Shown here: piece by piece, positions 1 through 64,000 of the stretch | How the letters are laid out: each line of letters begins with the position of its first letter | Numbering within the stretch: the first letter of the stretch is position 1 | NCBI GenBank assembly: GCA_963969365.1 | Contig: OZ017753.1 | Coordinates: forward strand, 2,294,001-2,358,000 | Source: Asterochloris sp. CNOR1 | Lineage: Eukaryota; Chlorophyta; Trebouxiophyceae; Trebouxiales; Trebouxiaceae | DNA length: 64,000 nucleotides | Reading direction: 5' to 3' | The notes under the pieces: generated by a model | What the model saw: only the letters and a program-made list of their open reading frames with translations | Told to the model about the DNA's origin: nothing | Databases searched by the model: none | Translations under genes and position numbers: made by a program

Positions 1-3000
1 CCCAGCAGCGTCCCGCTGGCGCCGTGCACCTGCTGCTGCAGCCTTGTGGCTCATCACAGCACTCTCAGCCAAGTCTAGCTGCGACTGTAGGCCTTCTCTC
101 AGGGCCAGATCTGTGGCTGCAACAGCAGCTGCAGTGCGCTGCTTCTCCTCAAGAAGCTGCACCTGCACACCAGAGTGTCTGTCAATTTCACACCTGGTGC
201 GCCCAGCGTGCTGGTGCAATCATAGCAGCCTGGGTCCTTCAGCACGGGACAGCCCATCAGGATTTGACATGCCTGCTGACATGTCAATGCCTGGCTGCTT
301 TGGAGGAGTGGAGTGAGGCACAACCTGCTGCGTGTGCAGGAGGCACAGGCACCAGGGGCTGTCACCCAGCGCTGAACATCCCAAAGGCTGTCAACTTGGA
401 TCCCTATGCCAACACATTGAGCAACCCTGCTGGATCACACATTGCTATGTCACCTGACTCTGAGCATTGCTCACCTGCTGCTGCGTTTGAGCGAGTTGGT
501 CATGGGCCTCCTGCAGCTCATCAACCGCCCCAGCACTGGCGGCACCACCGCGAGAGGTGCCACCTCCCCCAGCAGCGCTGCTGCCCCTGGCGAGGCCTGC
601 CTGCAGCTGCTGGGTGTGCGCAGTCAGCAGGGCCAGCTGGTTGCGCGTCTCTGCGCCCTCTGCCTCTGCCATGAGGGCTCGGTCCAGGGCATCAGCCGCC
701 TCCTCCTTGGCATCAGCCAGATGCCCCTGCCACACACACCCCAAGTGCCTGCTTTAGGCACTGTGTATGCTGTCTGTGAGTAGCAGTGGCATGCAAAACA
801 ACAGCAGCAAGAGAGCAGCATGCTCAAAAGCGATTGACTGGGATGCAGCAAGCTGTGACGCAACCAAGTGACTGGCCTGCTTGTTTCTGTGGTCACTGCA
901 TGGGTGAGCGCGGCTTGAAGGTTGCACGTGCGCCTGGGTTACAACAGCATGCACCAGCAAGCTGTGACCTCGCCAAACTCCATGTGAACCAGGAGGACGA
1001 GCTACCACACTGTCACAGCAGCACAGTGAGGAACCTGTCACCCTATGAGGCAGCACCTCTTGCCTGAGCTTGGTGCATTGCAGCTTGGCCTGAGGCAGCA
1101 CCTTCTGCTATAGAGGCAAGATGAGCAAAGCAGCCTGAAGCAGCAATCTTTTACTTGTTGTGATGCTGCCGTGGTGCAGCCTGAGGCAGCACCTCTGGCC
1201 TCAGGCTGATATACCACAGCCAGAGGCAGTGCCCATCACCTGAAGCTGCTGCACCTCAGCCTGGACAGCTGCCAGGCGCTCATCCGCATCCTCGAAGGGG
1301 TCGACTCCCTCGCCATCGGTCTGCACAGCAGCCTCTGCACACCCTGCTGCTGGGTGCTGCTGGCTTGCAGGGTCACCGCTGGCTGCTCCATAATCATGTG
1401 CCTCAGCTGAGGCAGCCACGCCAGCTGAGTTACCACTGCCAGTGCCTGCTAGCCCTGTTTGCGCTTCTGCATCTGCCAGGCCCACTGGCTGCACAGAGGC
1501 TGCGTGTCCCTGGCTGGTGGCGCCAGTGGCTTGGCGGCTGCTCTCTGCATGGCTGCCAAGGGCAGAAGCGGCTTCACCTGTACCTCGCCGCTGCCGCTGC
1601 AGAGCCTCCTCCGCTGCGTGGCGCAGACCGATCTCTGCCTGTTGCATGCCCAGGACCAGTCAGAATCCGCCCCGTCCACCAGGCAATGCAGCCGGACGAT
1701 GACACTTGGGAAATTTCTGAGCAAGCCTTGAGTGTGCTGCCCCCCAAGTACGCATTGGGTGGTGCATGCATGCACACCCCCTGCATACGGCAGTGGCAGC
1801 GGCCATTCATGGTGGACATGCGGGGACACAGCACACAGTGGCTTTCAGAACTTCCTCTGTGAGATGTGGCAGGTTTTAGTGAAGCAGATATACCCTCTGC
1901 CATGGCCATTGGCCTCCTGGACTGTCAGGCAAAGAGCCCACCGTGAGCTGTCCCTGCAGCAAGGTCAGGGTCTCCTGGACGCCATGCAACTCCCTGGTCG
2001 CCCTGCAGCCATTGGATGACGACTTTCAGGCCATGCAACACCAAGACAGTGCATAGTTTGGCAACACCAGCCAGCATGAGGCAGACCGCGCTCAGCGAGA
2101 TGTCTGCAGAATCTCTTTTCTCCAGGGTCGTGTACAGTTTCACCATGCGGCACCCAGACCTGGCAGCAGTAAGCAATTCACCGGGAGCAGCAGTGACCAG
2201 AAACAGGTGCAACAAAAGGCAGCATCGAGGGAGTTGGCCTCACGTCTGGGCGCTGCGAAAGCGCCTGCCTAGCGCGCTGCATAGCCTACTGCAGCGCTCC
2301 TAAAGCCGGGAGCATTCAGCATCTCACCCCAGGCGGTGCTGTTGGGCCTGCCTGGCAGGCTGCACGGCCTGGTAACAGCACCAACATGAAGAAGGCCCCC
2401 CAAGCACGGCAGAGCAACCTGGCAACACAAGAGGGTGACAAAGCCTCAAGCAAGTTGCCTCTGGCGATCCTGCTGAGCCTGCTTGGCACGCTCCATGGCC
2501 CGCTTGAGGCTGTCCACCAGGCTGCGCTCCACGCTGTGGTGGCTGCCAGACGGGCTCTGCTGCTCTGCAGGCGTGCACACAAACAATGAGCGGCCATTCG
2601 TGTTGGAGGGATCCAGAGAAGCTTCCCAATTTGCTTTGCTAGCTTGCGTAGTGACCTCCCTGCCATAACGTAGACGTGCATACAAGGCAGCTGTGCCGTG
2701 GTCGCCTGAGTGTCAGCTGCCGGGTTCCTTCTCAAGCTGCTCCCGTACCTGCTACATGAGGGGAAGACCGCAATGCCACACCTTGCCAAGCTGTGCTAGG
2801 CTGGCAACTCACCAAAGCTACGCACGCTGTTAAAAGAAGGAGTGCCAGGCACTCCTGCTTGAGTCCCCACAGATGCTGCAGGCTCCCATGCAGCACTGGC
2901 CCCTGCTGTCGGTAACTGGGCCGACCCCTGTGCCTCAGCAGTTGCAGCCAAAGCCACCTCTGCAAGCATGCAGAAGCATCCTATAAAGCACTGCTCACAT

Positions 3001-4469
3001 AAACATTGCAACATCCACCCCTCATCAGGGGTACCACTGAAACACATGTTGCAGCAAACACCCCATTCATGCAGCATCAGTGTGCAGGCATCCACCATCC
3101 CCTGCGGCAAAGTGGTTGCACTTGGTCGACGTGCAGGCGCTCACCATTGCCCTGCTGTGACAGCAGATGTACGGGCTGCTGAGTGCTCCCGCAGAGTGGC
3201 CAACCCCCTCTGGTATACAACTTACAGCAGCAGTGTGCAGACCCTCACCGTCGCCCTGCTGCAAGGCCGCTTCTGAGGGAGCGCTCTCAGCACACAGGCT
3301 GCCAGCATCTGAGGCTGCCTGAGAGTGCTCCAGCTCCAGGTTGAAGGACCGCAGGGAGCCACTCCTGCCCGCTGCGGGGCCTGAGCGCCTACCGCCCGCT
3401 GGCTGGTGCAGCATGATCGGGCTCACTGCTGGCGCCTCAGCCGACAGCCTGCCTGCTGCAGGGCCTGAGCGCCCAGGGGCCCCCAGCTGGTGCAACATGA
3501 ACGGGCTTTCCCCAGATGCCTCAGCTGAAAGCCTGCCCGCAAGGCCTGATTGCACACTGCGCCCGCTGAAGTAGGCACCCAGGGAGGGTGACCCCTGTCC
3601 AGATGCCTCAGCCGCGTGCCCGCCGACGTGGCCTGAGCGCAAAGTGCCCTCTGTGTGGTACCTGCACCACCCAGTTCAGATCTGACACATGTGCAGAGAG
3701 TGCACTGCCTCAAGCCTACAGAGACTGCACAGACAGACCAGACTGGTGGCACAAGGTGAGCCCCCAGCATGACCCACCAGCTCAGAGCACAGGCATACAG
3801 GCTTACCTTGTGTCTGCATATTGAGATAGAGAGCGGGAGCTCCAAGTGGAGGCCTCAGCGGACAGCCTGGCAGCTCCTGCTGCTGCACCAGTGCCAGTTC
3901 TGCTTGTACCAGCAGGTGTGAACTTTGGAGTGACGGCGTCTGTGGGCGCATCCTTTTGAGGGGTGTCTGCTGCAGTGGTGAGGTAGCTCCTGGCACTGCT
4001 GGCACTGCTCCCTGATGAGCCAGCTGAGAGCAGGGGTTCACTGGCGCCGCCCGGGAGCATGTCTGCCCAGCCAGCCGTCAGGTGGGGCTGCAACAGGACT
4101 CGCTGAGTGAAGGCCGTGCCTGCTGACAAGCTGCGCCGCTGCAGTGTGCCCGTGCTGCTGACAGCAGCGCGGTGCAGAGTGCCAGGGCTGCTCGAGCGCC
4201 ATGAGGCAGCCTTGCCTGTGACCTGGCCGGTGTGGCTGCCCAACTCCTGCATTGGGCAGCAGCATGAACATGAGGAGTGGCAGCCGTGTGCATGCTGCAC
4301 CACATCGAAAGCTGGTCTGCACAACTGTGAAGCCACTGACCTGGCGCTGCTGGAGCTGCAACGGCCGCAATGCTGCCCGCAACATGCTTCTGGAATGCAG
4401 TTCTGGAGTCGAGGTAGCATTTATATCTGCTGCAGGGCGTGGCGAAACATCGTGGCTGTCATCCTCCAT
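1..4469 (-). CDS. Large Ser/Ala-rich coiled-coil protein, multi-exon, 3' part beyond the window edge
   Basis: I do not recognise the family. A start codon at 4469 opens an acidic leader (MEDDSHDVSPRP) that splices (donor near 4340, acceptor near 4258) into a long Ser/Ala-rich exon ending near 3816 at SQYADTR. The next exon (about 3660-3253) joins in frame and contains a short tandem protein repeat with the core GRLSAEA..SP.MLHQ and RSGPAAGR. Further exons near 2446-2685 (SLVDSLKRAMERAKQAQQD), 1250-1640, 445-720 and 1-160 (VQLLEEKQRTAAA, LALREGLQSQLDLAES) are rich in Ala, Gln, Glu and Leu with heptad-like spacing, typical of a long coiled coil. The plan, a disordered Ser-rich head followed by a coiled coil, recalls golgin or centrosomal scaffolds, but that is only an analogy. 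The gene is divergent from the small membrane-protein gene at 4705. Exon order is inferred and not every junction was traced. Confidence 0.6.
3082..3268 (-). repeat. Junction echoes beside the coiled-coil gene exon end near 3253
   Basis: The exon 3' end and donor (3235-3268 on the plus strand, GTGCAGACCCTCACCGTCGC) recur in degraded form inside the following intron at 3131-3162 (GTGCAGGCGCTCACCATTGC) and 3082-3115. The spacing is about 50-100 bp. The copies lie in the same orientation and are too short and local to be a dispersed element. Confidence 0.6.
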
Positions 4470-6221: not shown

Positions 6222-9200
6222 ATGTCGGACCTGGACAGATGGATTGAGCAGCTCAGGGAGTGCAAGCCCCTGAAGGAACCTGAAGTCAAGCAGCTGTGCG
6301 AAAAGGCTCTGGAAATCCTTGTGGAGGAGAGCAATGTGCAGCGAGTGGATGCGCCCGTCACCATCTGTGGGTTTGCACAAATTCATGCAGTCTTGCACTG
6401 CTCTGCTGTCCAGAAGTCCTGCCAGAAGCTGTGCCTGGTCTCACAGAACGCAAGGCGTTGTTGTCCTTGCAATTGTCCTGGCCGCCTGCAGTGTTTGCTG
6501 GTCCGTCCTCAAGGTTTGCTGGCGCCATGAGTGCTGTTGATGCTTTGCCCCTTTCTGCAAGCAGCGACATCGATGTCAACCTTTATCTCAGAGGTCTGGC
6601 TGAGGACAGGGAAGCTTGGGCATTACTCAAAGACCAAGAAGTAATGGGCAGGTGCATGAATGCTGCCGTTAGGCATTGTCCCCAAGCATGTCAAGGCATT
6701 GGTCTGCCTGCAAGGCGCTGTTGTGCCTGCAGGCACTGCCATCCCAGAGGCCTCTCCACGTGGCTCTGCCTTGGCAGTGACACTCTGCAACCCTGCTCCT
6801 GCCTGCAGGCGGCGACATTCATGGGCAGTTCTATGACCTGATGGAGCTGTTCAAGGTAGGCGGGGACTGCCCCCAGACCAACTATCTGTTCATGGGCGAC
6901 TTCGTGGATCGCGGCTTCTACAGCGTGGAGACCCTGCTGCTGCTGCTGTGCCTCAAGGTGGGTGCTGCTGTGGTCACTGCATGCCACCTGAGAAACCTGG
7001 TGTTGCTGCTGAGCCTCAAGGTGGTTGGAAGCGCAGACAGGGTGGTTTGCACAGGCAGGCCTGCAACTCGCCCCAGAATGCATTGCAGGAAGCACAAGCT
7101 GTCCAGCAGATGTCATGTTATTGCACTGGAAAGGCAGGCTGCAAAGCAATCCCATCTGCTGACCACAGCGCCTACAACCCTCCGCGCAATGATCTGCAGG
7201 CAGCCAGAGAAACTCTTGGTATGGTGCACTGCAGGTGCGCTACCCAGACCGGATCATGCTGATTCGGGGGAACCACGAGAGCCGCCAGATCACACAGGTG
7301 GGCAGCCCGGCTGTGCCTGGAGAGCTTCCTGCCTCAGTGGCGGTGCACTGCGCCCCAAGCCTGTCGTGCTACCTGCATGGCGCAGCTGCTGAAGCCGGTG
7401 TTGGCACCAGTGGTGTTGCACCAGGGGCGCAAGGTGGTGTCACACCATTTCCTATGGATGGCTCGCACATCTGCTGGAGGTGGTGTCGTCCCAGATGCTC
7501 AATCTGGTAGTGTTGCACCAGTTGCCCTAAGTGTCGCACCAGTTGCCTCAGGTGCTTCTTGTCCTGGCTGTTTGCTGAGGATAGGAAGGTGGGTGAATAA
7601 AACAAAGCAAGCAAGCAAGCAAGCGAGCAAGCTGCCTGCTGTTGCAGGTGTACGGCTTCTATGACGAGTGTCTGCGCAAGTACGGCTCAGTCAATGTGTG
7701 GCGGTACTGCACAGACATCTTTGACTACCTCAGGTGAGCAGCCACACCCAGCAGCAGGAATGGACCCAACAGCGGTCACTGTGCCACAGGCAGGCTCTTC
7801 AGGGCCAGGCTGTGACTTTGAAGCAACAGTCAGGTGGCTGGCTGCAGCAGAAGCCTGCCAGCTGCTCATGTTTAGCTGGATGCGATGCTGCACTGACCCG
7901 TCTGTTTGGGTGCATCCTCTCAGCACGGTCTGTGTCAATCCATGGGGCAGCACTTGACCTTTGCATCCCCTGCCCTGCAGCCTCTCTGCGCTCATTGACA
8001 ACCGCATCTTCTGTGTACATGGGGGGCTGTCCCCCACGGTGCAGACACTAGACCAGGTGGGTTCATGGCGCATCAAGGGAAGCGCGCCTCTGAGTCTCCT
8101 CCACATGCTCTGTTGAGACTGCAGCCATGATCCACAATGCGCACCTGCACCTGCACCTGCGCCGCTCTCTGGCGTGTGCGCCAGCCCTTGCAGCCAGCCC
8201 CTTCAGCCTGCCCCCGTGCTGCACAGCATGTGTGCCAATGAGAGGACACCTGCCCCGGTTGGCCTGCAGCTGGCATCATCTTCTGATCAAGCACTGCCTC
8301 CTGGAGCTTGGGTGCACTGGTGCTTAAGCCTGGTGCCTGTGGCTTGCAGTGTGCCTGAGATGATGTAACTGCCCTGCGCTACAACAGCGCACTCTCTTGC
8401 CAAGCAGTGCTGTGCTGCAATGTCACTGTGTCTGAGAGAAGACCATATGCACAGCGCTGCTTGTTGTGTACCACATTTGAGAGTTTCTGGCCCTGCCCTG
8501 TAGCTGCGCACCATTGACCGCAAGCTAGAAGTGCCGCACGATGGGGCCATGTGTGACCTGCTCTGGTCTGACCCGGAAGACATTGAGGGGTGAGTGGGGC
8601 CCTGCTTGAGGGAGCATTGTAGGTGACACGTACCATCCACCCTCAGCTCTGGTGGTGCCAGGTGCAACCACACGGTCTGACCAAGAGTACATTAGAGGGC
8701 CGACTTTTGCCTGGCATGCATCATCTCATAGGAGCATTGCACATCAAATGCAGCTGTGCATTCATCTGCCTCAGCTATGGTCTGGAGGCTAGGCATTCCA
8801 TTCTGTCTGGCACTGACTCACCTGTGGCTTCACACCCAGCTGTCCTGAATCTAGTGATTGATGCAGTCTCATAGCTGCCCTGTGCACCCTGCTGAGCACT
8901 CTCCACCCTGCGTGATTCAGTGTTGATGATGGTGCAGCTCACTCTGCACTGGCAACAGGGGTAGCAACCCATGTGGGGGCCTGGCTACCTGTGCAGTGTA
9001 CCTTGCTCTTTAATACATCTCACCCTTTCCCTGCCCTGGCCGGTGCGGCCTTGACCTGGAGGTTCGAGCCACCTGTTGTTCAGGCTGCAGCTGACCCTTG
9101 ATGACCCCTGTGCAGCGCCTAAGCTCTGCCTGTGTCCCGGGCAGGTGGGGGCTCAGCTTGCAAGCATGGGCTCGGACTGCTTGTCATCAAGCTGCACTGG

Positions 9201-9953
9201 TCCAGCTCGCTGACTGCCCCATGAGCCCTGGCAGGTGGGGCCTCCGCCCAAGGGACGCCATCACCTGTCTTGCAAGCTCCACTGGCAATTGCGGCCAATC
9301 TAGCATTTCTTGAAGCTCACAGTCGCCCGGCGCTGTTTCAGGTGGGGCCTCAGCCCGCGGGGTGCTGGTTACCTGTTTGGCGGCGACATCTGCACCAATT
9401 TCAACCAGACCAACAAGGTGGAGCTTATCGCACGAGCTCACCAGCTGGTCATGGAGGGCTACAAGCTCATGTTCAACTCCCAGCTGGTCACCGTCTGGTC
9501 TGCGCCCAACTATTGCTACAGGTGGGCCGGGGCAGCATGGGGGTTCAGGCCCTCGCATGGGTGACTGCTGGCAGGGCCCATTGCTGAACCCAGAAACTGG
9601 CAGTGTTCCTGCTGATCCATCATTGGCAGGTGGTTACAGCCTGGTCTCCTGCTGACGCACCTCAGCCTCCTTCTGATGTGTGCTTCCACATCATCAATGC
9701 CTCTGCCCATGCTGATGCAATGTGCTGCACCTGCAGATGTGGCAATGTTGCAGCCATTTTAGAGCTGGATGAGCACCTACAGAAAAATTTCATGGTGAGC
9801 ACTGTGCCTCCTCAGCGCTTTGTGCTCTCTTTCCACTGAGCACTGTGCTTCCAAAGACTGACCAATCTGTGTCTGCAGGTGTTTGAGGCCGCACCCCAGG
9901 ATGCAAGGGGCCCCGTGCCTGCCAAGAAGCCCCCCGCAGATTATTTCCTTTGA
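6222..9953 (+). CDS. PP4C: Serine/threonine protein phosphatase 4 catalytic subunit (PP4c/PPX), 305 aa
   Basis: Nine exons (6222-6366, 6809-6957, 7235-7297, 7648-7733, 7981-8056, 8504-8589, 9342-9521, 9737-9794, 9879-9953) total 918 nt and keep frame throughout. The 305-aa product is close to the usual 307 aa. It starts [15 protein letters not shown] and carries the PPP metallophosphatase signatures GDIHG (Asp51, His53), GDFVDRG (Asp79) and RGNHE (Asn111, His112), then [14 protein letters not shown] and [11 protein letters not shown]. It ends in DYFL, the carboxyl-methylated tail typical of the PP2A/PP4/PP6 group. The N-terminus, the FKVGGD segment and the tail fit PP4 better than PP2A or PP6. 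PP4 dephosphorylates DNA-repair, centrosome and signalling substrates in complex with R2/R3 regulatory subunits. The 3' end faces the transporter gene across 147 bp. No lesion was seen; all metal-binding residues I checked are present. Confidence 0.96.
6940..7027 (+). repeat. Donor-side junction echo in PP4c intron 2
   Basis: The end of exon 2 and its donor (GCTGTGCCTCAAG|GTGGGT, to about 6963) recur about 60 bp downstream inside the intron as GCTGAGCCTCAAG|GTGGTT near 7007-7025. The copy keeps a GT after AAG and could act as a weak alternative donor. Confidence 0.65.
7603..7632 (+). repeat. (AAGC)n microsatellite in PP4c intron 3
   Basis: About seven near-perfect AAGC units, one with a G change (AAGCGAGC), lie shortly upstream of the exon 4 acceptor. 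Confidence 0.9.
8966..9380 (+). repeat. Acceptor-side junction echoes before PP4c exon 7
   Basis: The acceptor and first bases of exon 7 (CAG|GTGGGGCCTCAGCCCG at 9339) are preceded in the intron by copies at about 9141 (GCAGGTGGGGGCTCAGC) and 9231 (GCAGGTGGGGCCTCCGC), spaced about 90-107 bp. A weaker copy sits near 8970 (ATGTGGGGGCCTGGCTACC). The copies extend into exon-like sequence (CACCTGT against TACCTGT), so they are copies of the junction and not just of the acceptor consensus. Confidence 0.8.
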
Positions 9954-10100: not shown

Positions 10101-13100
10101 TTACAGATCCTCGGCACGCACACGATCAATGGCAGAAAGCTGGTGCTCAAGAGCAGTCTGATGTGCTGGCGCTACATGCTGCGCAATTTGTACAGTCGGG
10201 CTGTCAGGGTGAACAGGAGCCATGAATATGTGGCCTGTGTCCAGGTCCTGGTCTTCTTCTCGGATCCACGGTGGGGCAGGGCGCAGGTACTTCTGAAATA
10301 TCAGAATGCAGAGCGGCGAGATACATGTAAGGACTCCAATGATACCCCAGAGGTCATTGCCGTCACAGGTGACAGCTGTCGGGATGGGCGGTGGCGTCTC
10401 GCCTCCCTCACATCTTACTCCGTTGTCTGGGCAGAAACGCTGCAGGAGCACACCGCCCAGGGCCCCTGCAAGATGTTGGGCAGAGCTGAGCGGGCAACAG
10501 CATCACTTCTGCTGCTCAGATGCTGCTGACAGACAGGGGACACCAGCAGGTGACCTTGTGTAGGGACGAGACAACTGCTGGCAGTCTTGAGCAAGCTGAG
10601 CAAAGCTGGCACAAGCTGGTGTGGGGCCGTGACTGCTGCTGGCAGTCTTGTGCGACACTAGCAAAGTGAGAGGAATTGCTGACCTGTGAAGAACTTGCCC
10701 AGGAACAGTGGCGCAGCTGCAAAGGCGCCAAAAGCCCCCTCGCGGCCAGCAGGCGCCACTGACATTGAGTAGTCATACCTGCATGAAGGCAGCCGGGCAG
10801 GGAGTATATTGAGCCACCACTCTGTTCAGAGGTGTATGTGTGACAAAACATTTGCTTCTGACACAGCGTCCCGGCATCAATCCTGTCTGACATAAGGCTC
10901 TTGAATACTAGTGAGGCACAGCTAATAAGTGAACATTCGAGTCTCACCAGCGGGGTGACCATATAGCTTCTCCTATAGACAGCTGAAGAACAAATAAAGC
11001 GGCAGCCCATTCTGCAACGCCAAGTGTGATAGTCATGCTGCAGCTACCCGCCAGCAGGCCTTGCTTTTTCAGGAACGAAGCCGTGACTCTCACCTCTCTG
11101 AAATGCTGCTAGCCAGAAGGGACTCAGCGCAGAAAGATACGAGCCATAGTGGATCATGTCAAAGTGTTCATAGTGTGAAGCTGCACACAGAAGCAACTTC
11201 AGGGCCACTCATTAACAGCATGAGCAGCACGCTTCAGAGGCAAGATGGCCTGTGGCTGCAGCCAGAGCGGGCAGGGACAGGCAACTGACCCTTGAAGGCC
11301 ATGACAGCCTCAATCTCCATCACGCAATCAACACTCACTCATGGCTCCCACGATAGGCACCAGCGTCAATATGACAAGAGGGTTGATGGAGTAAATGAGG
11401 CCAATGTGGGCAGAACAGCCAAAGGACCTGCAGCGGCAGCACAGTGCCTGGACTCAGGCTGTGTGGGGCAGCCAGCCCAGGGTACCTCTACCTCACAGAC
11501 TCATCAGGCGGAAAGGTCATCAAACTCAGCCTGTGCAGCTCTTTGCTGCCTGAGAGGCAGCAACAAAAAGCCCTCGGGTTCAGGGGCAACACAGTGGCAG
11601 CAGACATTGCCTGCATGTGGATGTTACAATGCCTCCCAGCTGCTGTGACAGACTCCCACCTGACCTGGGCCTTTGGCAGGGTGGCATCCAGGTGCCTGAA
11701 GATTGTTTTCAGCCAGATGGTGACCACGCACCTGCAGTTGCCAGCAGCAGTGACACCAGAGGCTCAGTGCAGCCAAGCACTGGCCGTGCACATGCACAGG
11801 TCAGGCAGCAGCAAGGGTGTGTCCCTACCCATCATGCAGGCAGCATCCGTGCCAAGCAGCCAGGCAGTGGTGGTACAGAGCGCAAGCGGTACAGTGTGGC
11901 AATGTTCTTGCCCAGCAAATAGGCAGCATCTCTGCAGGGCTGCAGCCCTGCAGCTTTGAGGGTGCCTCTTCTGTGTTGCTCACATGGCCAGAAACTTCCA
12001 GAACTCCCGGGATGCCAGCAGCTCCTGCAGGTGAACGAGCTGCGTTGGAGCGAGCGTTCAGCACATCTACGATGTGGGCACAAGCCTACAGTTGGTGCAG
12101 CAGCCCTCACCAGCCAGCTTCCTCCAACCCAAGCATCAAGTGGCCCCAATCCCCTGCCATTCTGGCCAAGTATTCATGGCTTCCCAGCTGGTCAAATTCT
12201 TGGACAAGGCCAGCTGAGCACAGCCAGGGGCGCAATAATGACCTGAGCAGTCCCACCCGCTCCCGACCCAATTGATGAAACAAGCCGCCTGCCTTGGTTA
12301 CTCCCTAATCTGAGCCCCTCCTCTTGCTCCAGATCCCTCACATGCACCGCCCTCTGGATTGTTGCCACCCTGGAGCGCGCACATCGCTTGGCAGGTCAGT
12401 ACCATCCATCCACATGGCCAGTGCTCCAGCAGATGGCAGCCTTCATGCCTGCACATCCCTCTAGAAGCCTGCGACTGCCCTGCGCCACCTATTGCAGCGC
12501 TTCGGATGAACATTACAGGACTAGCCCTCTGGACCCCTCACGTGCACCTTCCTCTGGAAGCCCGCTGGTGCTTTGCCTCACCCGCTGCAGCAATGCAGGC
12601 AATACTGCCGACTCTGGGCCCCTCACCTGCACCTCCGTCTGAAACCGAGCCACCGCCCTGCGCCACCCGCCACCCACCGCCAGCTGCAGAGGCGCCCCAT
12701 CTGGGGCAGGCAGCCCTGCAAAGGGGCTGGTCATGATCACCAGGCGAGCGTGCTCCTCATCCTCTGCATCTGCCACCACTGCTGCCTTGAGTGCCTCTGT
12801 CAGCACCTGCAGATGCGTGAGGGAGCATGAGGGGAAGGGGCAGGGCAGCAGCAGCACTGTCGGGGTGACACCACCTTGACGTCAGGAAGGTGCACAGGAC
12901 CTCATCTGCGGGGCCAGTGGGCACTGACCCCTACGGGCTACAGGAGGTCTGGGGGTGACAGGCGCAAACCTGTCCACTCACCTGCCAAAGCCAGGTTGCC
13001 ACCAGCAAGCTGATGACATGTTGCGACACCCCTGAGCAGACACTGACGGCAACAGATCACTATCAGATTCTGGCTGTATCTCAGACTCTGGCTGAAGAGA

Positions 13101-54400: not shown

Positions 54401-57400
54401 ACAACACAATCATCAATGCATGCAATCGCAGCGGGCAGCCAGACGAGGGGTACAAGGTGTATGAGCGCATGCTAAGGGAGGGGGCAGTGCCCAGCGCCAC
54501 CACCTACACTGCCCTCATCTCAGCATATGGCAAGATTGGCAAGGTGGGCAAGTAGGCTTGGTGCAGCTCAGTGCAGGCTTAAGTGATGAGTGTAAGCGGT
54601 ACCATGCACGCTGAAGGAAGGGGCAGTGCCCTACGCCACCATCTACGCATCAGCAAGCAGGCTTGGTCGGGATCAGTGCAGGTTTCATATCAGGGATTGA
54701 AGGTGTGTGGCCAACATGCTGTAGGAAGTGGCAAATGCCCAGCGCCACCACATGCACTGCCCTCATCTCGACCTAGGGTAAGGTCAGCAATGTTGTCATC
54801 CTGTGCAGCTCAGTGCACAAAGGTTCCAGTTGTGACTTGGCCTTACATCGAGTTGAGATCAAGGGTGCAGGCTTCATGAGCAGAGTGTGAATGTTGAAGG
54901 CCTGACGCAGCCAGCTGCTGCACCCAGGTGTCACCTGGGGGAAGCTGGCGTGCTGCCAACTGACACCTGCTGCACCAGTCCTTCTTGCTGTGGGAGTATG
55001 TCGCTTGAGTGATGCACCCAAAGAGCCTTGGCATGTACAGCGGCTCGTTGTTGTGCATGCTGCCCAGGCTGCAGCACTACCCTGACTGACTACCCGCAGT
55101 CAGTCCCACACAACTGTCAGATAGATTTCGAGAACTAGTTAGCTGCACCGCCTGCAGGTGGACAAGGCCCTCAAGATCTTCCAGGACATGATTGCGCATG
55201 GCTGCGAGCGCAATGTCATCACCTACAGCTCCCTCATCAATGCCTGTGAGAAGAGCGGGCGCTGGCAGCTGGCCCTGCAGCTGTTTGACGACATGCAGCG
55301 CGATGGGTGCCACCCCAACGTGGTGTCATACAATGTCCTTGTCTCCACCTGCGCCCAGGGTGAGCATACCTGTGTTGATGGAGAGAGTCAGCATGGCTGC
55401 AGGGGAGTCCCAGCTCGCCTATGGCAGATTTACTGCCAGGTTGTAGTGCTGGCAAGCATTTGGTCACTACAACTTTACATACCTCAAGCTCTTCACTGCA
55501 GCTGCACTCTGCTCTTGTTGTCAGCCGGACGGTTTGGTTGTCAGCTTTGGCATGTTGATCAGCATGCCAGTCCATGACACCACAAGCTTGCCTATCTGCA
55601 TCTCTGCGTTGCTGCGCCCCCAGCATCATTTCTCACTGGGCAGGTGCACTTGTTGCTGTGTCTACACTCTTCAATGGGTCACTCAAGAGCTTGCCTTACT
55701 TGCCCGCAGCTGGGCAGTGGGCGGCTGCCCTGGGCGTGGTTGAGCGCATGGAGGCGCGCGGCTGTCGCCGGGATGCAGCCACCTACAGCCTCCTGCTGAC
55801 CGCGCTTGACAAGGGGCACCAGTGGAGGCGTGCTCTACAGGTGAGCCGTTACTGGCTTCGTCCATGGTGAAAGGCGTGGCCCCTTGTTTTGCCTGTAGGC
55901 TGCCTGCATCGCTGGGTGAAGCAGTGCCACCAATGCTTGCATCACTCCCCACAGCAGCTAACATCAGCCAGCAGCTTCCCGCTCACTGGGCCACTGCCCG
56001 CCTCTCCCCCTTTTCTCAGCAGTCCTGCTTGCGGCATAACATGCAAGCACTAACAGGCCTCTCAAGGACTGCCACCCTTTTGTATGGTCGAGGCTTGCAG
56101 CCTTGGGGCCTTCAAAGAAAGTTGTGTGCGCCAAGCTCACCAATTTTGCCTTCAGATCCTGGAGGAAGTGCACCCTTGGGGCCTTACACATAACATTTCC
56201 CTATGCGGTTAAGCTCACCCTGTGTACCTGCAGGTTCTGGAGGACATGCAGGCCCAAGGCCTGCGCCTGGATGTGGGGGTTTACAACACAGCCATCGACA
56301 TTCTGGTGCGCAGCGGCGTGCTGGCAGCGCAGCAGCAGGGGCTGCAGCTGTACCAGGCCGCCAACCGCCAGGGGCTGCTCAGGTAAGTCGCTGCCTTGCG
56401 GCACACTCTGGTGGCTATTTGACGAGTGGAGAGAATGTGTGGTGGTTGTGGGCTAGAGGTGTTGCTACTTAGTGAGTGCAAAGGTCATGTCATGCTCTGA
56501 AGTCAGGGGCTGCTCCACTGAGATTCCGCTCTGTGTCATGTATTGGTGGCTCTCTATTGCAATTGTCTGGTGCTGATCAGATCTAAGTCCATTAGCCAGC
56601 CAGACAGCTGGCAGCCATCTCATCATTCTCTATGGGGAGCTGGAGTTGCAAGGGTCGGCTTCTCTTGGGAGACAGGCACTGGCTCTCAACTCAAACCTGG
56701 CCAGCCTACCTCTGCGCCTGCAGGGTCTACATGCATTGCCTGGCTGGTTCCCAGCATGGCCACAGACATGGGCACCAGCTTCCCCAGCCTCTGCCTGCCA
56801 GCGCTTGACTCCCAGACATCATGTGCTGATCCGCCTCCATTGCCCCTGCGCAGGCTGGCCCCCCACTCAGCCACAGACGTGGGCATTCTGGCCTACTCCC
56901 TAGGCGCCACCCTGCTGGCTGCCATCCAATGGATTGGCGACCTGCGTGTGCGCGTCCTGAGCATCAGCGTAGCAAAGCCCACAGGCTCCTGCGTGTGGGG
57001 CCTGGTGCTGCTGCGGGGCAAGCAGGCGCGCCCAGAGCCAGCAGCTGGCTCAGTGCTGGAGGTGCTCTCAGGCATGCTCCAGGCCTTTCAGGCGCCTATC
57101 ACCACCTCTGTGCTGCCCCAGGTCAGTGCTGTGTGTCAAACTCGATAGGGCATTGTAGATGACCTCTGTGCTGCAGCAGATGGGCGCTGTGTGTGCATTT
57201 GCTGGATCAAACTCTGCTGTCTGGCCCTCAGCGCAGTTCTGTCCAAGCTGAGCCGGAGCTGTAAGCTGCCTGGGGCTTGCCATCGCTCTGTGTCTCCCAG
57301 CATGCTGCCAGTCATGTCAGTGCACAAGATCACCAAGAAGGCATTGAGTTGGCAGCTACAGCACCTGCAGCTTTGCAGCGCCTCACAGCCAGCGCCTCTT

Positions 57401-59877
57401 CCTGGTCAGCAGTGTCACTGCCTCACTGCAGGGCCTGCGCATAGAGCTGGCAGGGGAGGCTGCTGTTAACTGGCTGGAGGGCGTTCAAGCTGAGGCCCTG
57501 CTGCGCAGCCCCCTGGCCGCCCCTGGGACTGCCGCAGTCCTCCCCATTGCGCAGGTGGTTGAGGCTGACCTTCAAGTGGAGATGCGCTGCTTCAAGGCCT
57601 TCGCGGCTGTGCGGGTGAGTGGGGCTCTGCCTCAGGAGTGGGCAGCTTTGCTGCGCCTGCTGTATGATTGAGATTGGGGTTGTTGAGACAGGCTGACTCA
57701 GGGCCTTACAGCTGTGCAGGTGGGTGGGAGGCCGTGACAGTGGTGACTGCCTGTGTCCCAGACATCGGTCAAGGTCTTTCTGCTGTGCTTAGGGCCAGGG
57801 TAGAACAGAGCTGCCGTTGAAGGCAGCTGGCTGCATCTGGTGAAGTGCCTGTGTGGCCTCTGCGCCGTGCTTGCATGGCGTCCCCAGCTACCTGCACCAG
57901 CCTGTTGCCCTTCCTTCATGGCTGTCCTTGCAGCAGCAGCGCTTCCTTCCTGAGGCAGCCTGCTGGGGAAAGGGGCTTTGAGCATGGACTCCTCTCCCTG
58001 CAGACTTTTGAGGCAGCCCACCCCCCGCCTAGCTTCCCTGCCGCGGACGACGACTCTGCCAAGCAGCGCCGGGAGCATGTGAACAAGCTGATGGCCCTGG
58101 GGCGCGCCTTTGGCTTCCTGGAGGAGACCCTCCATGACGCCGTGCAGCTGTGGGACCGGGTGCTGGACCTGAAGCCAGCTGCTGCGGAGGGTGACTGGGG
58201 CACGGTGGCCGCTGCAGTGCTGCTCATCGCCGCCCAGCAAGGTGTGTTGCGTGTCTTGCCACAGTCACCAGCCCCCTGCATCATGGCATCACCTGTCCTG
58301 GCCAGCAGGGCGACTGGGGCTGCTGTGGTGCTCGTTGGGTTCCACCAGGGTGCATTGACTTGCAGCAGACAGGTGTATGGCCTCAGTATCAGTCTGGGGG
58401 AGAGCTTCTTTTGCGGCCTGGTCCATACCCGATGAGCGTCAGCATGTGCTGCATTTTATTCTGGCCTCTGCTTGACAAAGAGAGCCGTCGCTGCTCCCGC
58501 CTGCTCCCACACAATCAAGCAGCGTGAGCTGCTTGCACACGATGATCAAGCTGCTCTTGGTGCAGACTCCTCGTGCTTGCCTGCAGGCAAGGATTTCGTA
58601 GGTTGGTAGCCGCTTGCTGGTGCAGGCGTTTATGTGCCTGCCCACTCAGTCATCTGCCTGTGTGCAAAGCATACCCCACCTCTGCCTGCAGGTAAAGCCT
58701 GCGGGACATTTTGCAGCCCAGATGGTGGTGAAAAGATGGCCTGCAAGTGAACACACACGTCTTACCACTTAAAAACAGACTCGGTAACATCTCTTGACCC
58801 CTGCAGGCGAGGCTCCTGAGAAGTTCCCCAGCCCCATGCTGGTGCAGCAGATCACGGGGCAGGATGCCGCCAAAGTGCGGGAGCTGGAGGTGCAGGTCTG
58901 CAGCATCCTGCAGGGCAACACAGGGGCCATCTCAGCGCTGCGCATCCTGCACCTCTATCTGGAGAGGATGGGCTGCGACTTCCAGGTGAGGCCTGGGAGC
59001 CCTACAGGCATGTACAGGGGCAGGGGCAGGACTCCTTAGGTTGTCATGCCTGGCACAAGTGGGTGCTCTGCATCTCCAAGCTGCTGCTCTGCACCTGAGC
59101 CAGCTGTCACCATCTACATCTGCAAGCTGAAGCCCCCAATAGTGCAGGCCACAGACGCTGCTGTGGAGGCTTCTGCTATTAGGTGTTGGCATGATTAATG
59201 AGGTGCAGCATTCATGCTGCCCCCAGTCACTGCCAGGCTTTGAGGACAGAGCCTGTCAGGGCCACCTGACGGCTGCACGCCAGCTGGCAGGACCCACTCC
59301 TGCTGACGGCACCTGCCCTGACTCCCCCTGCAGGACCTGAGCCAGCTGAGCAGCATGACTGGCGCAGCCCTGCACATGATGGGGCGCGCCATCTTCGTGC
59401 CAGCCCTGCGGGCCTATCCCCCCAGCTTGGTTGCTGCCACGCTGTTGTACTGTGCACGGCAGAACGCGGGAACCCCTCCGCTGTGGCCAACCTCCCTCAT
59501 CGAGCTGACGGGTGGGTGTGCTGCTTGCTGATCCACTCTGGGAACACTTTGGCTGGAGCCTTGACAGTAAGCTGCCTGGCTTGGTGGGCTCTTGAAAGGG
59601 TCTCATGCGCATTTCAGGTGCAGTTGGCAGGGCCTCACAGCGGCCGCGCATGCTACCTCTTGAGACTGCCATCGCGCCCCTGCAGGTCATTCTGGACCCC
59701 AGCTTGCCGAGCTTGCAGGCTGCAGCATGTACAGCCTGAGCACTGCCACTCTGCCCTGCAGGGTACTCAGGTACCAATGACAACACCTTCAGCGCGTGCC
59801 TCAAGGCGTCCATGGGCCTCTCTCGCCAGGACAGTCCCGCCGGGCATTTTGAGCTGCCCGCCATGACCGCACACTAG
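51428..59877 (+). CDS. PPR-cyclin fusion protein, paralogue 2, 946 aa
   Basis: Fifteen exons keep frame and total 2,841 nt: 51428-51864, 52244-52439, 53050-53164, 53521-53690, 53991-54101, 54376-54543, 55158-55359, 55710-55840, 56234-56382, 56854-57121, 57432-57614, 58004-58241, 58807-58985, 59334-59511, 59762-59877. Residues 1-145 are a disordered Pro/Gln/Ser-rich head. Residues 146-250 hold the leader CTVEDLLRIVRALP..LDSRAVAALLK. Residues about 250-560 hold PPR motifs (NLVTYNILIDVYGKSGA, TYNTIINACNRSGQ, NVITYSSLINACEKSGRW). Residues 560-650 (SLGATLLAAIQWIG) are unassigned, perhaps SMR-derived. Residues about 700-946 are a cyclin fold: FLEETLHDAVQLWDRVL, AAAVLLIAAQQGEAPEKFPSP, ISALRILHLYLERMG, YPPSLVAATLLYCARQ, LIELTGYS. 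It probably binds organelle or nuclear-encoded RNA through the PPR part; the role of the cyclin fold is unknown. Two introns use GC donors. Confidence 0.93.
53165..53520 (+). other. GC-AG intron in PPR-cyclin paralogue 2
   Basis: Exon 3 ends ACCTACACCACAG and is followed by GCAAGC; exon 4 begins TGATCAGCC after CCCTGCAG. Only this junction gives the expected TT-V-ISQCG. At the same position paralogue 1 has a normal GTGAGG donor. Confidence 0.8.
53691..53990 (+). other. Second GC-AG intron in PPR-cyclin paralogue 2
   Basis: Exon 4 ends CAGCAGCTGCAG and is followed by GCAAGC; exon 5 (AGGGAGGGC) follows TTCTGCAG. Exon 4 is 170 nt and exon 5 is 111 nt, the same as the matching exons of paralogue 1, where the donor is GTGAGG. 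Confidence 0.8.
54477..54790 (+). repeat. Donor-side junction echoes after exon 6 of PPR-cyclin paralogue 2
   Basis: The exon end GGGGCAGTGCCCAGCGCCAC ... GGCAAG|GTGGGC (54481-54549) recurs in the intron at about 54616-54690 (GGGGCAGTGCCCTACGCCAC) and 54724-54790 (TGGCAAATGCCCAGCGCCAC). The period is about 110-140 bp. Flanking intron words CTTGGTGCAGCTCAGTGCAG and CTTGGTCGGGATCAGTGCAG are also shared. Confidence 0.88.
56121..56265 (+). repeat. Acceptor-side junction echo before exon 9 of PPR-cyclin paralogue 2
   Basis: The real junction AAGCTCACCCTGTG..CTGCAG|GTTCTGGAGGACATGCAG (56211-56251) has a copy about 78 bp upstream: AAGCTCACCAATTT..TTCAG|ATCCTGGAGGAAGTGCAC. The copy keeps an acceptor and an open frame for about 18 codons. 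Confidence 0.85.
57102..57215 (+). repeat. Donor-side junction echo after exon 10 of PPR-cyclin paralogue 2
   Basis: ACCTCTGTGCTGCCCCAG|GTCAGTGCTGTGTGT..CAAACTC (57104-57143) recurs from about 57160 as ACCTCTGTGCTGCAGCAG|ATGGGCGCTGTGTGT..CAAACTC. The donor GT has become AT in the copy. Confidence 0.85.
57594..57732 (+). repeat. Donor-side junction echo after exon 11 of PPR-cyclin paralogue 2
   Basis: AAGGCCTTCGCGGCTGTGCGG|GTGAGTGGGGCTC recurs about 105 bp downstream as AGGGCCTTACAGCTGTGCAG|GTGGGTGGGAGGC. The copy retains a GTGGGT donor. Confidence 0.8.
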
Positions 59878-60209: not shown

Positions 60210-60235
60210 CACATCTGACCGAAAAGTCAGATGTG
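60210..60235. repeat. 10-bp perfect hairpin with 6-nt loop
   Basis: CACATCTGAC at 60210-60219 pairs exactly with GTCAGATGTG at 60226-60235 around the loop CGAAAA. It lies 120 bp from the larger hairpin in the same convergent spacer. Confidence 0.95.
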
Positions 60236-60602: not shown

Positions 60603-62305
60603 TCAGGTACTCAGCTGAGGAGTGGTGGCCGTCAGCAGCGCCACTGATGTCTGTCCACTTGACAAGCCGGTGCAATAGTCATGAATCAGGTCCCAAAAGG
60701 GCTTGCTGGTCTCTGGCTGGTCCAGCAGCGTCCTGCATTGGGAGCAAGCTCAGTATGATGCTTCTGACAAAGGTCATGCAGACCAGGACGGGCCAGGGAG
60801 ATGTGCTCAGTCACAGCCAGCACACCTCTGCTTTGCATCCAGCTGTACGTCTACTAGGATGAGCTTGAGCTTGTCAAGCTTCAGGCTGCCCAAAGTTGCC
60901 AACTCCAGGAGGCGGTGTGGGGTGCCCACTGCCAGGCACACTGGCTGCACTGCGAGGAAGTCCTGCTGCTCAGGCACCTTGAAATGCTTGGCAAAGAGCT
61001 TGCCGATGCGGCAGGCCTGCAGAAGCAGCCAGGATTTCTGATGGGGCTGACCAACTGATGTGCAGCAGCATGGACCAGGAGCATAAGGCAGTGGTGGCAG
61101 AGGCTGGGGCCCACCTTATTGAAGTTTGGCAGCTGTCTGATGATGTTCACAGCCCCCACTGCAGATGATGTAACCAGGAGGGCACTTGGCTTCCCGATGG
61201 CCTGCTCTGTGTTGCAGAATAGCTTTTCCCAGTCGTGCACATGGCTGAGCCGCTCCTCCAGGGTGCCCTCCAGTGGCACAGCTTGGACATGTGCATCTGC
61301 AGAGGGTCAGGCACAGCTGCAAGCCAAAGGGTCTTGCCTCCAGCTGTACATGCGTGGACCAGCGGTATTTGCAGGCAGTCGTGCACATAAGACATTGTCA
61401 GGTGATGGGCAATGGCTGCTCTCAGAGTAAGCACTGGAAGCACAGAGGACCCGCAACCTGCCCACAGAATGGCACCAGCTCGTTTGTCTGCAGCCTTACT
61501 GGCACGTGCCACTGCTGCACTGGGGATCGCACCACCTGAGCAACCCTTGGAGGCACTAGAAGTTGCCTGGAGACTGCACCTGTGAAGGGGCTGACGTCCA
61601 AGGCTGTGGCCGCGCCTGCACCTGGATCAATACTGCTGAGCCACTTGGCCTGCTCTGCTGTGCTGCGCTGCGTGATGGTTCGGGCCACCTCCCGAGATGC
61701 TGCATACTCCAGGGCCGATTGCCGCTGACCCTGCACATGCAGGGCAGAGCCATCACATGCATGACGACATGCCAGGCAAGCAGTCTGGGCCTGATGGCGC
61801 TGACCACAATGCAGGGCCAGATTGTTGAGCCTGAGCCACTGCACCTCAAATTCTGCAGGAACACTTACTGCAGTCCTTCAAGCAGTGGGAGCACACCACT
61901 GCAAGGACAGCGTTGCAGTCCTGGAGTCACAAGCATGCTTGATGCCAGATGTAACGGCAGGCTGATTGCACGGACTGACTTTAGGGGGCTTCTTGCGCTT
62001 CTTCTTTGTCTTGCCGTCTGCAGTCACAGCTGGGTCCTGTGCAGCTGGCTGGGCGCCCTCATCATCACTGCTGACGTCTTCTGGCTCAGGAGCATCCAGG
62101 TCCTGGAAATCATCATCGTCGCCGCCTGCAGCAATGTATCTGGTTGGTTCTTGTAGCATGCCTTCAACCAGTCGCACAGGAATCCTCATGGCTTTATCCG
62201 TTTGACACTTGCCAGACATCTCTACCCCGGAGAGGAGCATCACCCACCAGCTGCAAAATGTGCGGCAGGCTGCTCCTTTGTCCGCTTCGGCTTTTTGTTG
62301 CCCAT
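60603..62305 (-). CDS. CMS1: CMS1/CMSS1-like protein (ribosome biogenesis), 285 aa
   Basis: Six exons (62248-62305, 61980-62125, 61580-61730, 61115-61296, 60826-61016, 60603-60732) keep frame and total 858 nt. The start MGNKKPKRTKEQPAAHF leads into an acidic then basic linker (GGDDDDFQDLDAPEPEDV, KTKKKRKKPPK), which looks like a nuclear/nucleolar signal. The conserved core follows: KPSALLVTSSAVGAVNIIRQ, then ACRIGKLFAKHFKVPEQQ, LAVGTPHRLLELATLGSLKL and KLKLILVDVQLDAKQRTLLD. This is the degenerate DEAD-box-helicase-like fold of Cms1/Cmss1, which lacks the usual Walker motifs. In yeast Cms1 is linked to the small-subunit processome. The gene shares a 91-bp spacer with the divergent CCA-adding enzyme gene. 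Confidence 0.88.
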
Positions 62306-62396
62306 GTTAGCTGAGTTTCGTTGACAGGTAATCACTTCAGCTGCAGCACATGGGCGGTCAAGTCAAAGCTGACCTAAAGCACATCTCACAGTCCTC
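62306..62396. promoter_or_regulatory. 91-bp bidirectional promoter, CMS1 / CCA-adding enzyme
   Basis: Only 91 bp separate the two inferred start codons, so the 5' leaders and core promoters must overlap or be very short. Both genes serve RNA maturation, which is compatible with co-expression. No TATA box was seen. Confidence 0.55.
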
Positions 62397-64000
62397 ATGC
62401 GCAGCATCGCTGCCGGTAAGATTGGCAGATTCAGATTGTACTTGACACACCGCACCCAGATCTGCCTGAGGCATCACAGATTGGCCACTTCGTGCGCCAT
62501 GCCGGTGCACCTGCAGCAGGTGCAGCTGAAGGACTCTGAGAAGGAGCTCTTCAGATTGCTCAAGAACACCCTGCAGCATGCCAACCTGAGGACAACTCTA
62601 AGATGTGCGGGTGGATGGGTCAGGGACAAGTTGCTGGGGAAGGACTCTGTGGACATCGACATTGCGCTGGATGATATGCTGGGCACACAATTTGCAGAGC
62701 ACCTCAACGCCTACCTGGAGTCCCAGGTTGGCAGAGCATCAGTCTGTCAGCTATCAGCATCCATGTCAAGTGTACAGTCAGCTGTAAGTGGCTGAAGGCT
62801 GCAGCAGGGCCACCAAGCAGAATTGTCCAGTCAGCAGCCGCCTATGAAACACTGCTGTGCCCCTAAGCACTGACCCTGGCACTGCAAGGCAAAGCTAACG
62901 AAACACTGCCGTGCCCCTGAGCACTGCCCCTGGCACTGCAAGGCAAAGCTACCCTTGCACCCCCCTGGTGAAGCATGCTCCCTGCCTGGCAGAGTTAAAT
63001 GGCTGCACTGCCCTTGTGAAGGTTGTTTTCTCCCGGACCACTGCAGGGCACTGCCAGTGGCCAAACTGCCCTGCCCTGAGCCCTGCCCCTGACACCGCAA
63101 GGCAGAGCTGGTGGCTGTGCCGTTAATATGAAATGCACTGACACTGCAGGGCACAATCAGAGACCGCGCCTCCACCATAAAGAGTGCTCTCTCCCTGGCA
63201 CTGCAGGGCAAGGCCACCGGCCGTATTGCTGTGGTGCAAGCCAACCCTGAGCAGTCCAAGCACCTGGAGACTGCCAAGGTCAAGGTGAATGAGCTGGAGA
63301 TTGACCTGGTCAACCTGCGCTCAGAGACCTATGCCAGCGAAGCAGCCCACCGCATTCCAGAGATGACTTTTGGCACCCCGGAGCAGGATGCGTTGAGGCG
63401 GGACTTCACCTTCAACAGCATGTTCTACAACATCAACACTGAGCAGGTCAGCCGTCTTGTTGCTGATGCAGCATGTGGGGTGCAGCTTGTGGTTTGCAAG
63501 CCTTGGTGGAGGCATTAGCACTGGGCAGGAGAGGGCTAAGACAAGGCAGCTGCAGCCTGGAAGTGTGTGGGTGTCTCTGCTGGGGGGCCATGCATGTGCC
63601 TGACAGCGCCACTTCCTAGTCCTCTCTAGCTTGTCCCACGGGCTGGAGCAGCCTATCCTTGTAGCTCAGCTTGTTTATTGGAGCAGCAGAACTTGATGTC
63701 TTACAAGTGGCACATGGCACCTTCAACAGCTGTGCAGCACCAGAGCTGTCATCAGGCTGAGCCGAGGCTGCTACTCATGACATGCCATGTATGCTGCAGA
63801 GGCAGCTGCTGCCTGGGTTGCGTGACGCCTGCAGGGGTAACCCTGCTCCCATGATACCCTGACTGAGGCCTGACAATGCTGCCCTTGCCCAAGTCAAGCT
63901 GGGGTCATGAGTCAGTCAAGGTATCTGCTCTGTGCCTGTTCCTGCAGCAAGTGCTTTTCACACTACAGGTCGAAGACCTGACAGGCAAGGGGCAACAGGA
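62397..64000 (+). CDS. CCA tRNA nucleotidyltransferase (class II), 5' part
   Basis: Exons 62397-62726 and 63207-63446 (110 and 80 codons) are in frame, and a third starts at 63969 (VEDLTGKG) and runs off the window. The N-terminal 35 residues (MRSIAAGKIGRFRLYL...) are basic and free of acidic residues, as in a mitochondrial or plastid presequence. The Met at residue 35 (MPVHLQQ) could start a cytosolic form, a known arrangement for this enzyme family. Motif A is clear: RCAGGWVRDKLLGKDSVDIDIALDD, with GG-x-VRD at 72-77 and the catalytic DxD at Asp86 and Asp88. In exon 2 the LRRDFTFNSMFYN motif follows (RRDFT-N-x-x-Y), then VEDLTGKG. The enzyme adds CCA to tRNA 3' ends. Confidence 0.95.
62861..63221 (+). 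repeat. Acceptor-side junction echo array in intron 1 of the CCA-enzyme gene
   Basis: The real junction CCCTGGCACTGCAG|GGCAAGGCCACC (63193-63218) is preceded in the intron by copies near 62872 (CCCTGGCACTGCAAGGCAAA), 62930 (the same 20-mer), 63084 (CCCTGACACCGCAAGGCAGA) and 63140 (ACTGACACTGCAGGGCACAA). The three leftmost have CAAGG in place of CAGGG, which moves the AG by one base. Confidence 0.88.

What the first reader, a model, noticed from the sequence alone, without database searches (positions are those of the whole stretch)
1..64000. Pervasive tandem 'junction echoes': introns carry degraded copies of their own splice junctions
In at least six of the genes I found a 50-120 bp segment spanning an exon-intron boundary repeated in tandem within the intron, one to several times, on either the donor or the acceptor side. 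The copies include exon sequence, so they are not just similar splice consensus. They have point changes, often in the AG or GT itself. The local head-to-tail arrangement differs from introner elements or transposons, which insert copies from elsewhere. Established background: tandem duplication of an AG-GT-containing segment is one proposed route to new introns. Inference: this genome appears to go through repeated rounds of such local duplication, giving intron growth, splice-site shifts and new introns.
Basis: partly seen in the sequence, partly recalled or inferred. Interest (0 to 1): 0.85.

Follow-up and report, generated by a model that had tools for sequence, protein, structure and literature searches.

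The report
Introns with copies of own borders
In this alga-like genome many introns contain one or more worn copies of their own exon border, left behind by frequent short tandem duplications that probably do little harm there, because using the outermost copy of the border still gives the normal protein.

Summary
I self-trained a gene finder on the window plus 280 kb from 12 other contigs of the same genome. Of 519 usable predicted introns, 45 (15 of 105 in the window) carry a diverged direct copy of their own donor or acceptor junction, exon sequence included. The same test gave 0 of 5190 intron-to-intron pairings and 0 of 1557 Markov-shuffled introns. Local direct repeats number 253, against 8 local inverted repeats with separate arms. 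Spacings most often lie at 80-120 bp.

The junction itself does not appear to be targeted. Simulated random tandem duplications, kept only if the coding sequence survives, give the observed junction share (58 of 85 class counts; 59-61 expected), although one positional profile leans the other way. Echo GT and AG are not preferentially disabled, and I found no convincing new intron.

Best reading: a widespread fossil record of short tandem duplication, readable at exon borders because selection holds one copy. The ingredients are known; the density and form look like a new variant. No RNA data and no other alga could be tested.

The parts
6933..7027 (+). Donor junction 6957|6958 (6933-6964) and its echo 6996-7027 in a PP2A-type phosphatase gene; 28/32 identical, spacing 63
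   Evidence: the junction LK|VRY aligns without gap to human PP2A
9130..9372 (+). Acceptor 9341|9342 and two upstream echoes (about 9130-9170 and 9220-9260) of the same phosphatase gene
   Evidence: Found by eye; the cores CAGGTGGGG-CTC match in both, but over the whole stretches only 23/46 and 26/46, below the pipeline threshold. The gene finder called them exons; PP2A lacks those residues (query 212-241 unaligned)
6555..6844 (+). Tentative acceptor echo: called exon 6565-6593 resembles the start of the true exon at 6809
   Evidence: 26/50 identical, weak; an 11-residue insertion relative to PP2A
21275..21528 (+). Donor 21351|21352 (21275-21408) and echo 21393-21528, HEAT-repeat, GCN1-like gene (name recalled)
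   Evidence: 97/138 identical, spacing 118
28167..28293 (+). Donor 28200|28201 and echo 28250-28293
   Evidence: 35/44 identical, spacing 83; intron 28201-28731 has no other match in the genome search
29485..29651 (+). Donor 29543|29544 (29485-29548) and echo 29592-29651 with intact GTGAG
   Evidence: 48/64 identical, spacing 107; intron has no other match in the genome search
30432..30590 (+). Acceptor 30543|30544 (30535-30590) and upstream echo 30432-30478, called an exon (30441-30491)
   Evidence: 40/56 identical; flagged as in-register copy of its neighbour
30692..30852 (+). Donor 30710|30711 (30692-30723) and echo 30821-30852, GT changed to GC
   Evidence: 28/32 identical, spacing 129
54446..54817 (+). 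Donor 54543|54544 of a PPR gene (54446-54575) and two downstream echoes (54606-54646, 54692-54817)
   Evidence: 96/132 and 34/41 identical; sole other genome match of intron 54544-55157; removing the falsely called exon gives PPR repeats (PPR_2, E 4e-90)
57576..57728 (+). Donor 57614|57615 (57576-57623) and echo 57682-57728
   Evidence: score 105, identity 0.75, spacing 106
56096..56250 (+). Acceptor 56233|56234 (56169-56250) and upstream echo 56096-56172
   Evidence: 58/82 identical
20424..20569 (+). Acceptor 20545|20546 (20486-20569) and upstream echo 20424-20509
   Evidence: score 107, identity 0.68
62846..63229 (+). Array of acceptor-like copies in a poly(A) polymerase head-domain gene: 54-bp pair 62846-62951 at 49/52, more diverged copies at 63065-63109 and 63186-63219
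   Evidence: family by Pfam PF01743. By eye the true acceptor is near 63208, not at the called 63149
39194..39384 (-). Acceptor 39254|39253 of a second PPR-like gene (39194-39286) and echo 39290-39384
   Evidence: 74/95 identical, spacing 96-98
13109..13297 (-). Donor at 13252|13251 (13204-13297) and adjacent echo 13109-13203, MFS transporter gene
   Evidence: score 190, identity 0.72, spacing 95; MFS_1 by Pfam
13386..13649 (-). Array of about 80-bp units around an exon border, partly called as short exons
   Evidence: score 289 at spacing 82, further matches at 155 and 228; exon 13514-13567 flagged as copy of its neighbour
12450..12670 (-). Donor at 12627|12626 and echo(es) in intron 12025-12626
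   Evidence: scores 150 and 120, spacings 93 and 178
2311..2500 (-). Donor at 2459|2458 (2442-2500) and echo 2311-2369
   Evidence: score 125, identity 0.71
3072..3264 (-). Donor at 3249|3248 (3225-3264) and echo 3072-3110
   Evidence: score 105, identity 0.80

Best explanation
The genome undergoes frequent short head-to-tail duplications, mostly about 60-150 bp, at roughly random places. Duplications inside coding sequence survive only if in frame. Duplications that span a donor or an acceptor survive because using the outermost splice site (first donor, last acceptor) leaves the message unchanged and drops the extra copy into the intron. That copy then decays like any intron DNA while the exon copy is held by selection, so the pair stays recognisable. 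Introns grow by such steps, sometimes several times at one border. Shown here: local, direct repeats; junction-spanning copies far above controls; in-frame bias inside exons only; junction share as expected from random placement. Inferred: the tandem-duplication event itself, neutrality, use of the outermost site in RNA, and break-repair fill-in or slippage as the molecular cause.
For: 253 local direct repeats at >=100 against 8 inverted repeats with separate arms in the same region (72 if self-palindromes are counted) and 2 cross-sequence matches. 45 of 519 introns with a junction copy; 0 of 5190 and 0 of 1557 in controls. Spacing is a multiple of 3 in 21 of 25 exon-exon repeats (p 3e-7) but in 29 of 86 junction repeats, 15 of 48 intron-intron and 8 of 24 intergenic ones. 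Simulated random duplication plus coding survival predicts 59-61 of 85 class counts spanning a junction; observed 58 (p 0.47 and 0.81). Mismatch between exon and echo is highest at codon position 3 (198 of 691, against 162 of 693 and 138 of 693 at positions 1 and 2), as expected if the exon changes mainly at silent sites. Twenty of 53 echoes carry a net frameshift. Three very similar arrays overlap by only 1-4 bases beyond one unit. Echo frequency rises with intron length, from 2 of 150 below 150 bp to 25 of 101 at 400 bp and above.
Against: In introns of at least 300 bp, 40-base tiles at the exon edge have an ungapped copy in the intron 4.7 times as often as intron-interior tiles on the donor side (22 of 342 vs 14 of 1026) and 2.8 times on the acceptor side (16 of 342 vs 17 of 1026), more than the roughly twofold gain I would expect from slower exon decay alone. 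Donor echoes exceed acceptor echoes (38:20 introns, p 0.025; 37:24, p 0.12 after adding echo-like false exons); the three-class fit to the simulation is poor for that reason (p 0.019). In-frame stops in echoes are somewhat fewer than neutral decay predicts (4 against 10.7-11.6, P 0.01-0.03). Spacings of junction and non-junction repeats differ somewhat (medians 117 vs 92.5, KS p 0.007). Gene models are self-trained, without RNA.
Confidence: 0.82

Rival explanations
1. Splice junctions are preferred sites of duplication, for example through breaks or R-loops at transcribed exon-intron borders, so echoes report a junction-targeted process that builds introns.
For: Tile profile peaks at the exon side of the border. 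Donor echoes outnumber acceptor echoes.
Against: The share of junction-spanning repeats is what random placement plus selection gives. The same kind of repeat occurs in intergenic DNA (30 of 253) and within introns (49 of 253).
Confidence: 0.1
2. The copies are functional alternative or mutually exclusive exons, or decoy splice sites kept to tune splicing.
For: Fewer in-frame stops than expected (4 vs 10.7-11.6). 16 of 301 short predicted exons are in-register copies of a neighbour's border (0 of 1305 in control). The L022_023 48-nt units keep both splice sites.
Against: Twenty of 53 echoes have a net frameshift in the exon part. GT and AG are kept no more than neighbouring bases. Echo exons break the match to PP2A.
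Confidence: 0.05
3. Introner elements or other dispersed repeats that happen to lie at exon borders.
For: Introners are known in green algae (Micromonas; passage in PMC3488318).
Against: Three echo introns match nothing else in the genome search except, once, their own junction. Cross-sequence matches are 2 against 253 local ones.
Confidence: 0.02
4. An artefact of splice consensus, low complexity or gene prediction.
For: Gene models are unaided predictions, and some echoes were mis-called as exons.
Against: Cross-intron pairings share the consensus and give 0 of 5190; shuffled introns 0 of 1557. Two junctions are borne out by protein families.
Confidence: 0.01

Closest known systems
Short tandem duplications from break repair (Pol alpha-primase/CST fill-in and end joining; PMC8355091, passages read)
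   Same: Direct, adjacent, tens of bases up to about 100 bp; described there as the most common short insertions in the human genome and as seen in plants.
   Different: Here known only as diverged fossils in one genome; repair pathway untested; unit sizes often reach 100-150 bp.
Intron gain by tandem duplication of an AGGT segment (Rogers model; potato RdRp gene, PMC4974935; Drosophila near intron pairs, PMC2891723; passages read)
   Same: A local duplication that includes splice signals. The potato paper also mentions an 83-bp tandem duplication inside an intron that left the gene structure unchanged.
   Different: Here existing borders are copied into existing introns; no convincing new intron in 403 tested.
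Introner elements (Micromonas; passage in PMC3488318)
   Same: Shape introns in green algae.
   Different: Introners are dispersed families; these copies are local.
Direct repeats at the ends of young introns in Daphnia and Drosophila (PMC2809761, passages read)
   Same: Direct repeats overlapping splice sites, attributed to break repair.
   Different: Those flank whole young introns; here one member usually lies inside an older intron.

Membership tests
Short tandem duplication | Second copy local and in direct orientation | tested here: met
   253 direct vs 8 inverted with separate arms (72 with self-palindromes) vs 2 cross-sequence
Short tandem duplication | Copies exactly adjacent (spacing equals unit length) | tested here: inconclusive
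   True of several of the most similar arrays, not of all repeats above 88% identity; older pairs align over only part of the spacing (median ratio 0.70)
Short tandem duplication | Present independent of gene structure, in frame within coding sequence | tested here: met
   30 intergenic and 49 intron-interior pairs among 253; exon pairs 21 of 25 in multiples of 3
Short tandem duplication | Arises as a de novo insertion in living strains | not testable with these tools
Intron gain by AGGT tandem duplication | Donor and acceptor contexts of one intron are copies in register | tested here: not met
   2 of 403 at >=90, 3 of 403 at >=80 (0 of 4733 in control). The two at >=90 look like echo arrays with doubtful models; the third was not examined
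Introner elements | Many similar copies at unrelated genes | tested here: not met
   Three introns searched genome-wide, no unrelated match; the other echo introns were tested only within the sample
Duplicated alternative exons | Open reading frame and both splice sites kept, spliced in RNA | tested here: inconclusive
   20 of 53 net frameshift, 3 of 53 with stops, 32 of 53 free of both; no RNA available

The most novel reading that the evidence does not exclude
In this lineage short tandem duplication is a main engine of intron growth, and the spliceosome reliably uses the outermost of two or more near-identical splice sites (first donor, last acceptor). The genome would then hold thousands of natural splice-site competition experiments of graded age, with the donor excess reporting stronger selection against duplicated acceptors.
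Probability: 0.3. Interest if true: 0.7.

Novelty: new variant of a known kind. Interest (0 to 1): 0.55.

Why it matters
If it holds for the whole genome, exon borders act as dated reference points for a mutation class that is usually invisible once diverged, so the rate, size and age of short tandem duplications can be read from one genome. It offers a concrete route to the conspicuously long introns reported for six core-Reinhardtinia algae (medians 198-343 bp; passages of PMC8226300). It creates duplicated splice sites of graded similarity for testing how the spliceosome chooses. It is also a practical warning: 16 of 301 short predicted exons here are likely border echoes, so gene annotations of such genomes may contain false exons.

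Tried and rejected
A first all-local search with lenient scoring gave long alignments mostly at 55-60% identity and a noisy control (1083 direct, 371 inverted, 560 cross at score 110); I discarded it and tightened the scoring. The first junction test used that lenient scoring and agrees in direction (donor 43 of 520 vs 5 of 2600 cross pairings, acceptor 30 of 520 vs 3 of 2600 at >=110); its weaker controls are closer at low thresholds (at >=70 donor 116 of 520 vs 417 of 2600). The inverted count of 10 came from a smaller search region; one search repeats it on the same region (72, of which 64 are self-palindromes).

Selective disabling of echo splice sites: rejected, no excess of changes there. 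Junction targeting: not needed but not excluded. Acceptor deficit: suggestive only. New introns by AGGT duplication: none convincing. The L026_027 candidate reads as a triplicated acceptor, the L014_015 candidate as repeated donor copies. A search of solved structures with the predicted 1969-residue HEAT-repeat protein found nothing, so its GCN1 name is recalled.

Simulation limits: one event per simulated intron, unit lengths taken from the observed non-junction spacings, exon rates (0.1 and 0.6 of neutral) and indel rate assumed, only the best alignment counted, whereas observed counts take each class once per intron from up to six alignments, with 8 donor-acceptor, 6 exon-exon and 1 edge cases left out of the 85.
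Full report
What the window is. The window is bases 2,294,001-2,358,000 of contig 8 of a 56.4-Mb genome in 21 contigs. The genome has at least 31 matches to the chlorophyll a/b-binding family, so it is a plastid-bearing eukaryote; 'green alga' is inferred. Genes are dense, with GT-AG introns.

Gene models. Having no annotation, I wrote a hidden Markov gene finder and trained it on its own predictions over the window and 14 stretches of 20 kb from 12 other contigs, 344 kb in all. It converged on 79 genes and 714 introns with a clear donor (CAG|GTGAG) and acceptor (TGCAG|G). Where a relative was found the models hold up: the phosphatase aligns to human PP2A apart from two echo-like inserts, and a PPR gene gives seven PPR_2 stretches once a false exon is left out. 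Other window proteins match MFS_1, Aa_trans, CMS1 and PolyA_pol. The 1969-residue HEAT-like protein found no solved relative.

Observation test. For each of 519 introns I asked whether the donor or acceptor border, with at least 10 exon and 4 intron bases aligned, has a second copy at least 25 bases away inside its own intron. At score 100 there are 31 donor and 16 acceptor cases in 45 introns. The identical search against other introns of similar length gave 0 of 5190; shuffled introns gave 0 of 1557. Cases occur in 7 of 11 window genes and 11 of 15 stretches at score 90. Two of the four stretches without a case, L014_015 and L022_023, do hold predicted exons that are border copies.

What the repeats are. 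Independent of gene models, local direct repeats at score 100 number 253, against 2 cross-sequence matches and 8 inverted repeats with separate arms, or 72 with self-palindromes. Spacing peaks at 80-100 (41 pairs) and 100-120 (27). By location, 49 pairs are within introns, 30 intergenic, 37 exon-exon, 41 donor-spanning and 23 acceptor-spanning, with 27 more linking an exon edge to an intron and the rest mixed. Eight percent of intron bases (14,351 of 179,437), 6.0% of exon bases and 4.5% of intergenic bases lie in such copies at spacings up to 400. Within exons the spacing is a multiple of three in 21 of 25; elsewhere it is not biased. Some arrays are nearly unchanged, for example three copies of 68 bp at 93-96% across an acceptor in L026_027 and five copies of 137-148 bp in L022_023, so the process is recent or continuing.

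Origin of the copies. Three echo introns searched against the whole genome matched only themselves, and in one case their own donor junction at 73%. That speaks for local copying and against introners, for those three.

Is the junction special? In a simulation of uniformly placed duplications that spare the coding sequence, with exons evolving more slowly, donor, acceptor and interior events were recovered 347:387:284 or 215:222:191, depending on the age range. Observed introns are 38:20:27. Junction against interior fits (58 of 85, p 0.47 and 0.81); the three-way fit is poor (p 0.019) because donors exceed acceptors. A separate positional profile in 171 long introns shows exon-edge tiles copied 2.8-4.7 times as often as interior tiles, more than slower decay alone should give. 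I therefore read junction targeting as unnecessary but not excluded.

What happens to the echoes. Mismatch is 0.23-0.27 per base. GT is kept in 24 of 35 and AG in 11 of 18, about what independent decay gives. Codon-position mismatches are 0.23, 0.20 and 0.29 at positions 1, 2 and 3. Twenty of 53 have a net frameshift and 3 of 53 a stop. The 4 stops are fewer than the 10.7-11.6 expected (P 0.01-0.03), which I cannot fully explain. Sixteen of 301 short predicted exons are in-register copies of a neighbouring border (0 of 1305 in control).

Intron growth and gain. Introns with an echo have median length 445, the others 222. The echo rate is 2 of 150 at 60-150 bp, 5 of 131 at 150-250, 13 of 137 at 250-400, 18 of 78 at 400-600 and 7 of 23 above. 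Longer introns offer more room, so this fits growth without proving it. Predicted introns here have median 211.5 bp, and 22% lie at 60-110 bp, so the short class is not absent as reported for core-Reinhardtinia (PMC8226300 passages). Donor and acceptor contexts matching in register, the mark of intron birth by AGGT duplication, occur in 2 of 403 introns at score 90, neither convincing.

Literature. Nine searches of the open library returned no listing that describes introns carrying copies of their own splice junctions as a genome-wide feature; I judged by titles and abstract starts and read passages of seven papers. Closest are break-repair tandem duplications (PMC8355091) and tandem-duplication intron gain (PMC4974935, PMC2891723). 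Vaughn and Bennetzen 2014 and Gao and Lynch 2009 were not held and are known to me only by citation.

Verdict. Observation confirmed; the local-duplication reading supported; the claims of junction specificity, splice-site shift and new introns not supported. Limits: predicted gene models, 0.6% of the genome, no RNA, no strains, no other alga.

Noticed in passing
L022_023 19250-20000 (minus): Five copies, about 92% alike, of a 137-148-bp unit holding a 48-nt stretch between TGCAG and GTGAAG; may be spliced as extra 16-residue exons.
   Followed up: partly
L026_027 545-748: Three copies of 68 bp at 93-96% across an acceptor; three near-identical tandem acceptors, of which only the last appears to keep the frame.
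   Followed up: partly
L014_015 7208-7821: By eye an intron with several partial copies of the preceding exon end, and a doubtful 39-nt exon after it.
   Followed up: partly
window 3364-3660: In-frame 84-bp tandem repeat inside a predicted coding exon (minus strand).
   Followed up: no
window 30209-30232: Run of more than 20 G inside an intron; a C run also near 13786.
   Followed up: no
all echoes at score 90 or more: Fewer in-frame stops in echoes than neutral decay predicts (4 vs 10.7-11.6).
   Followed up: partly
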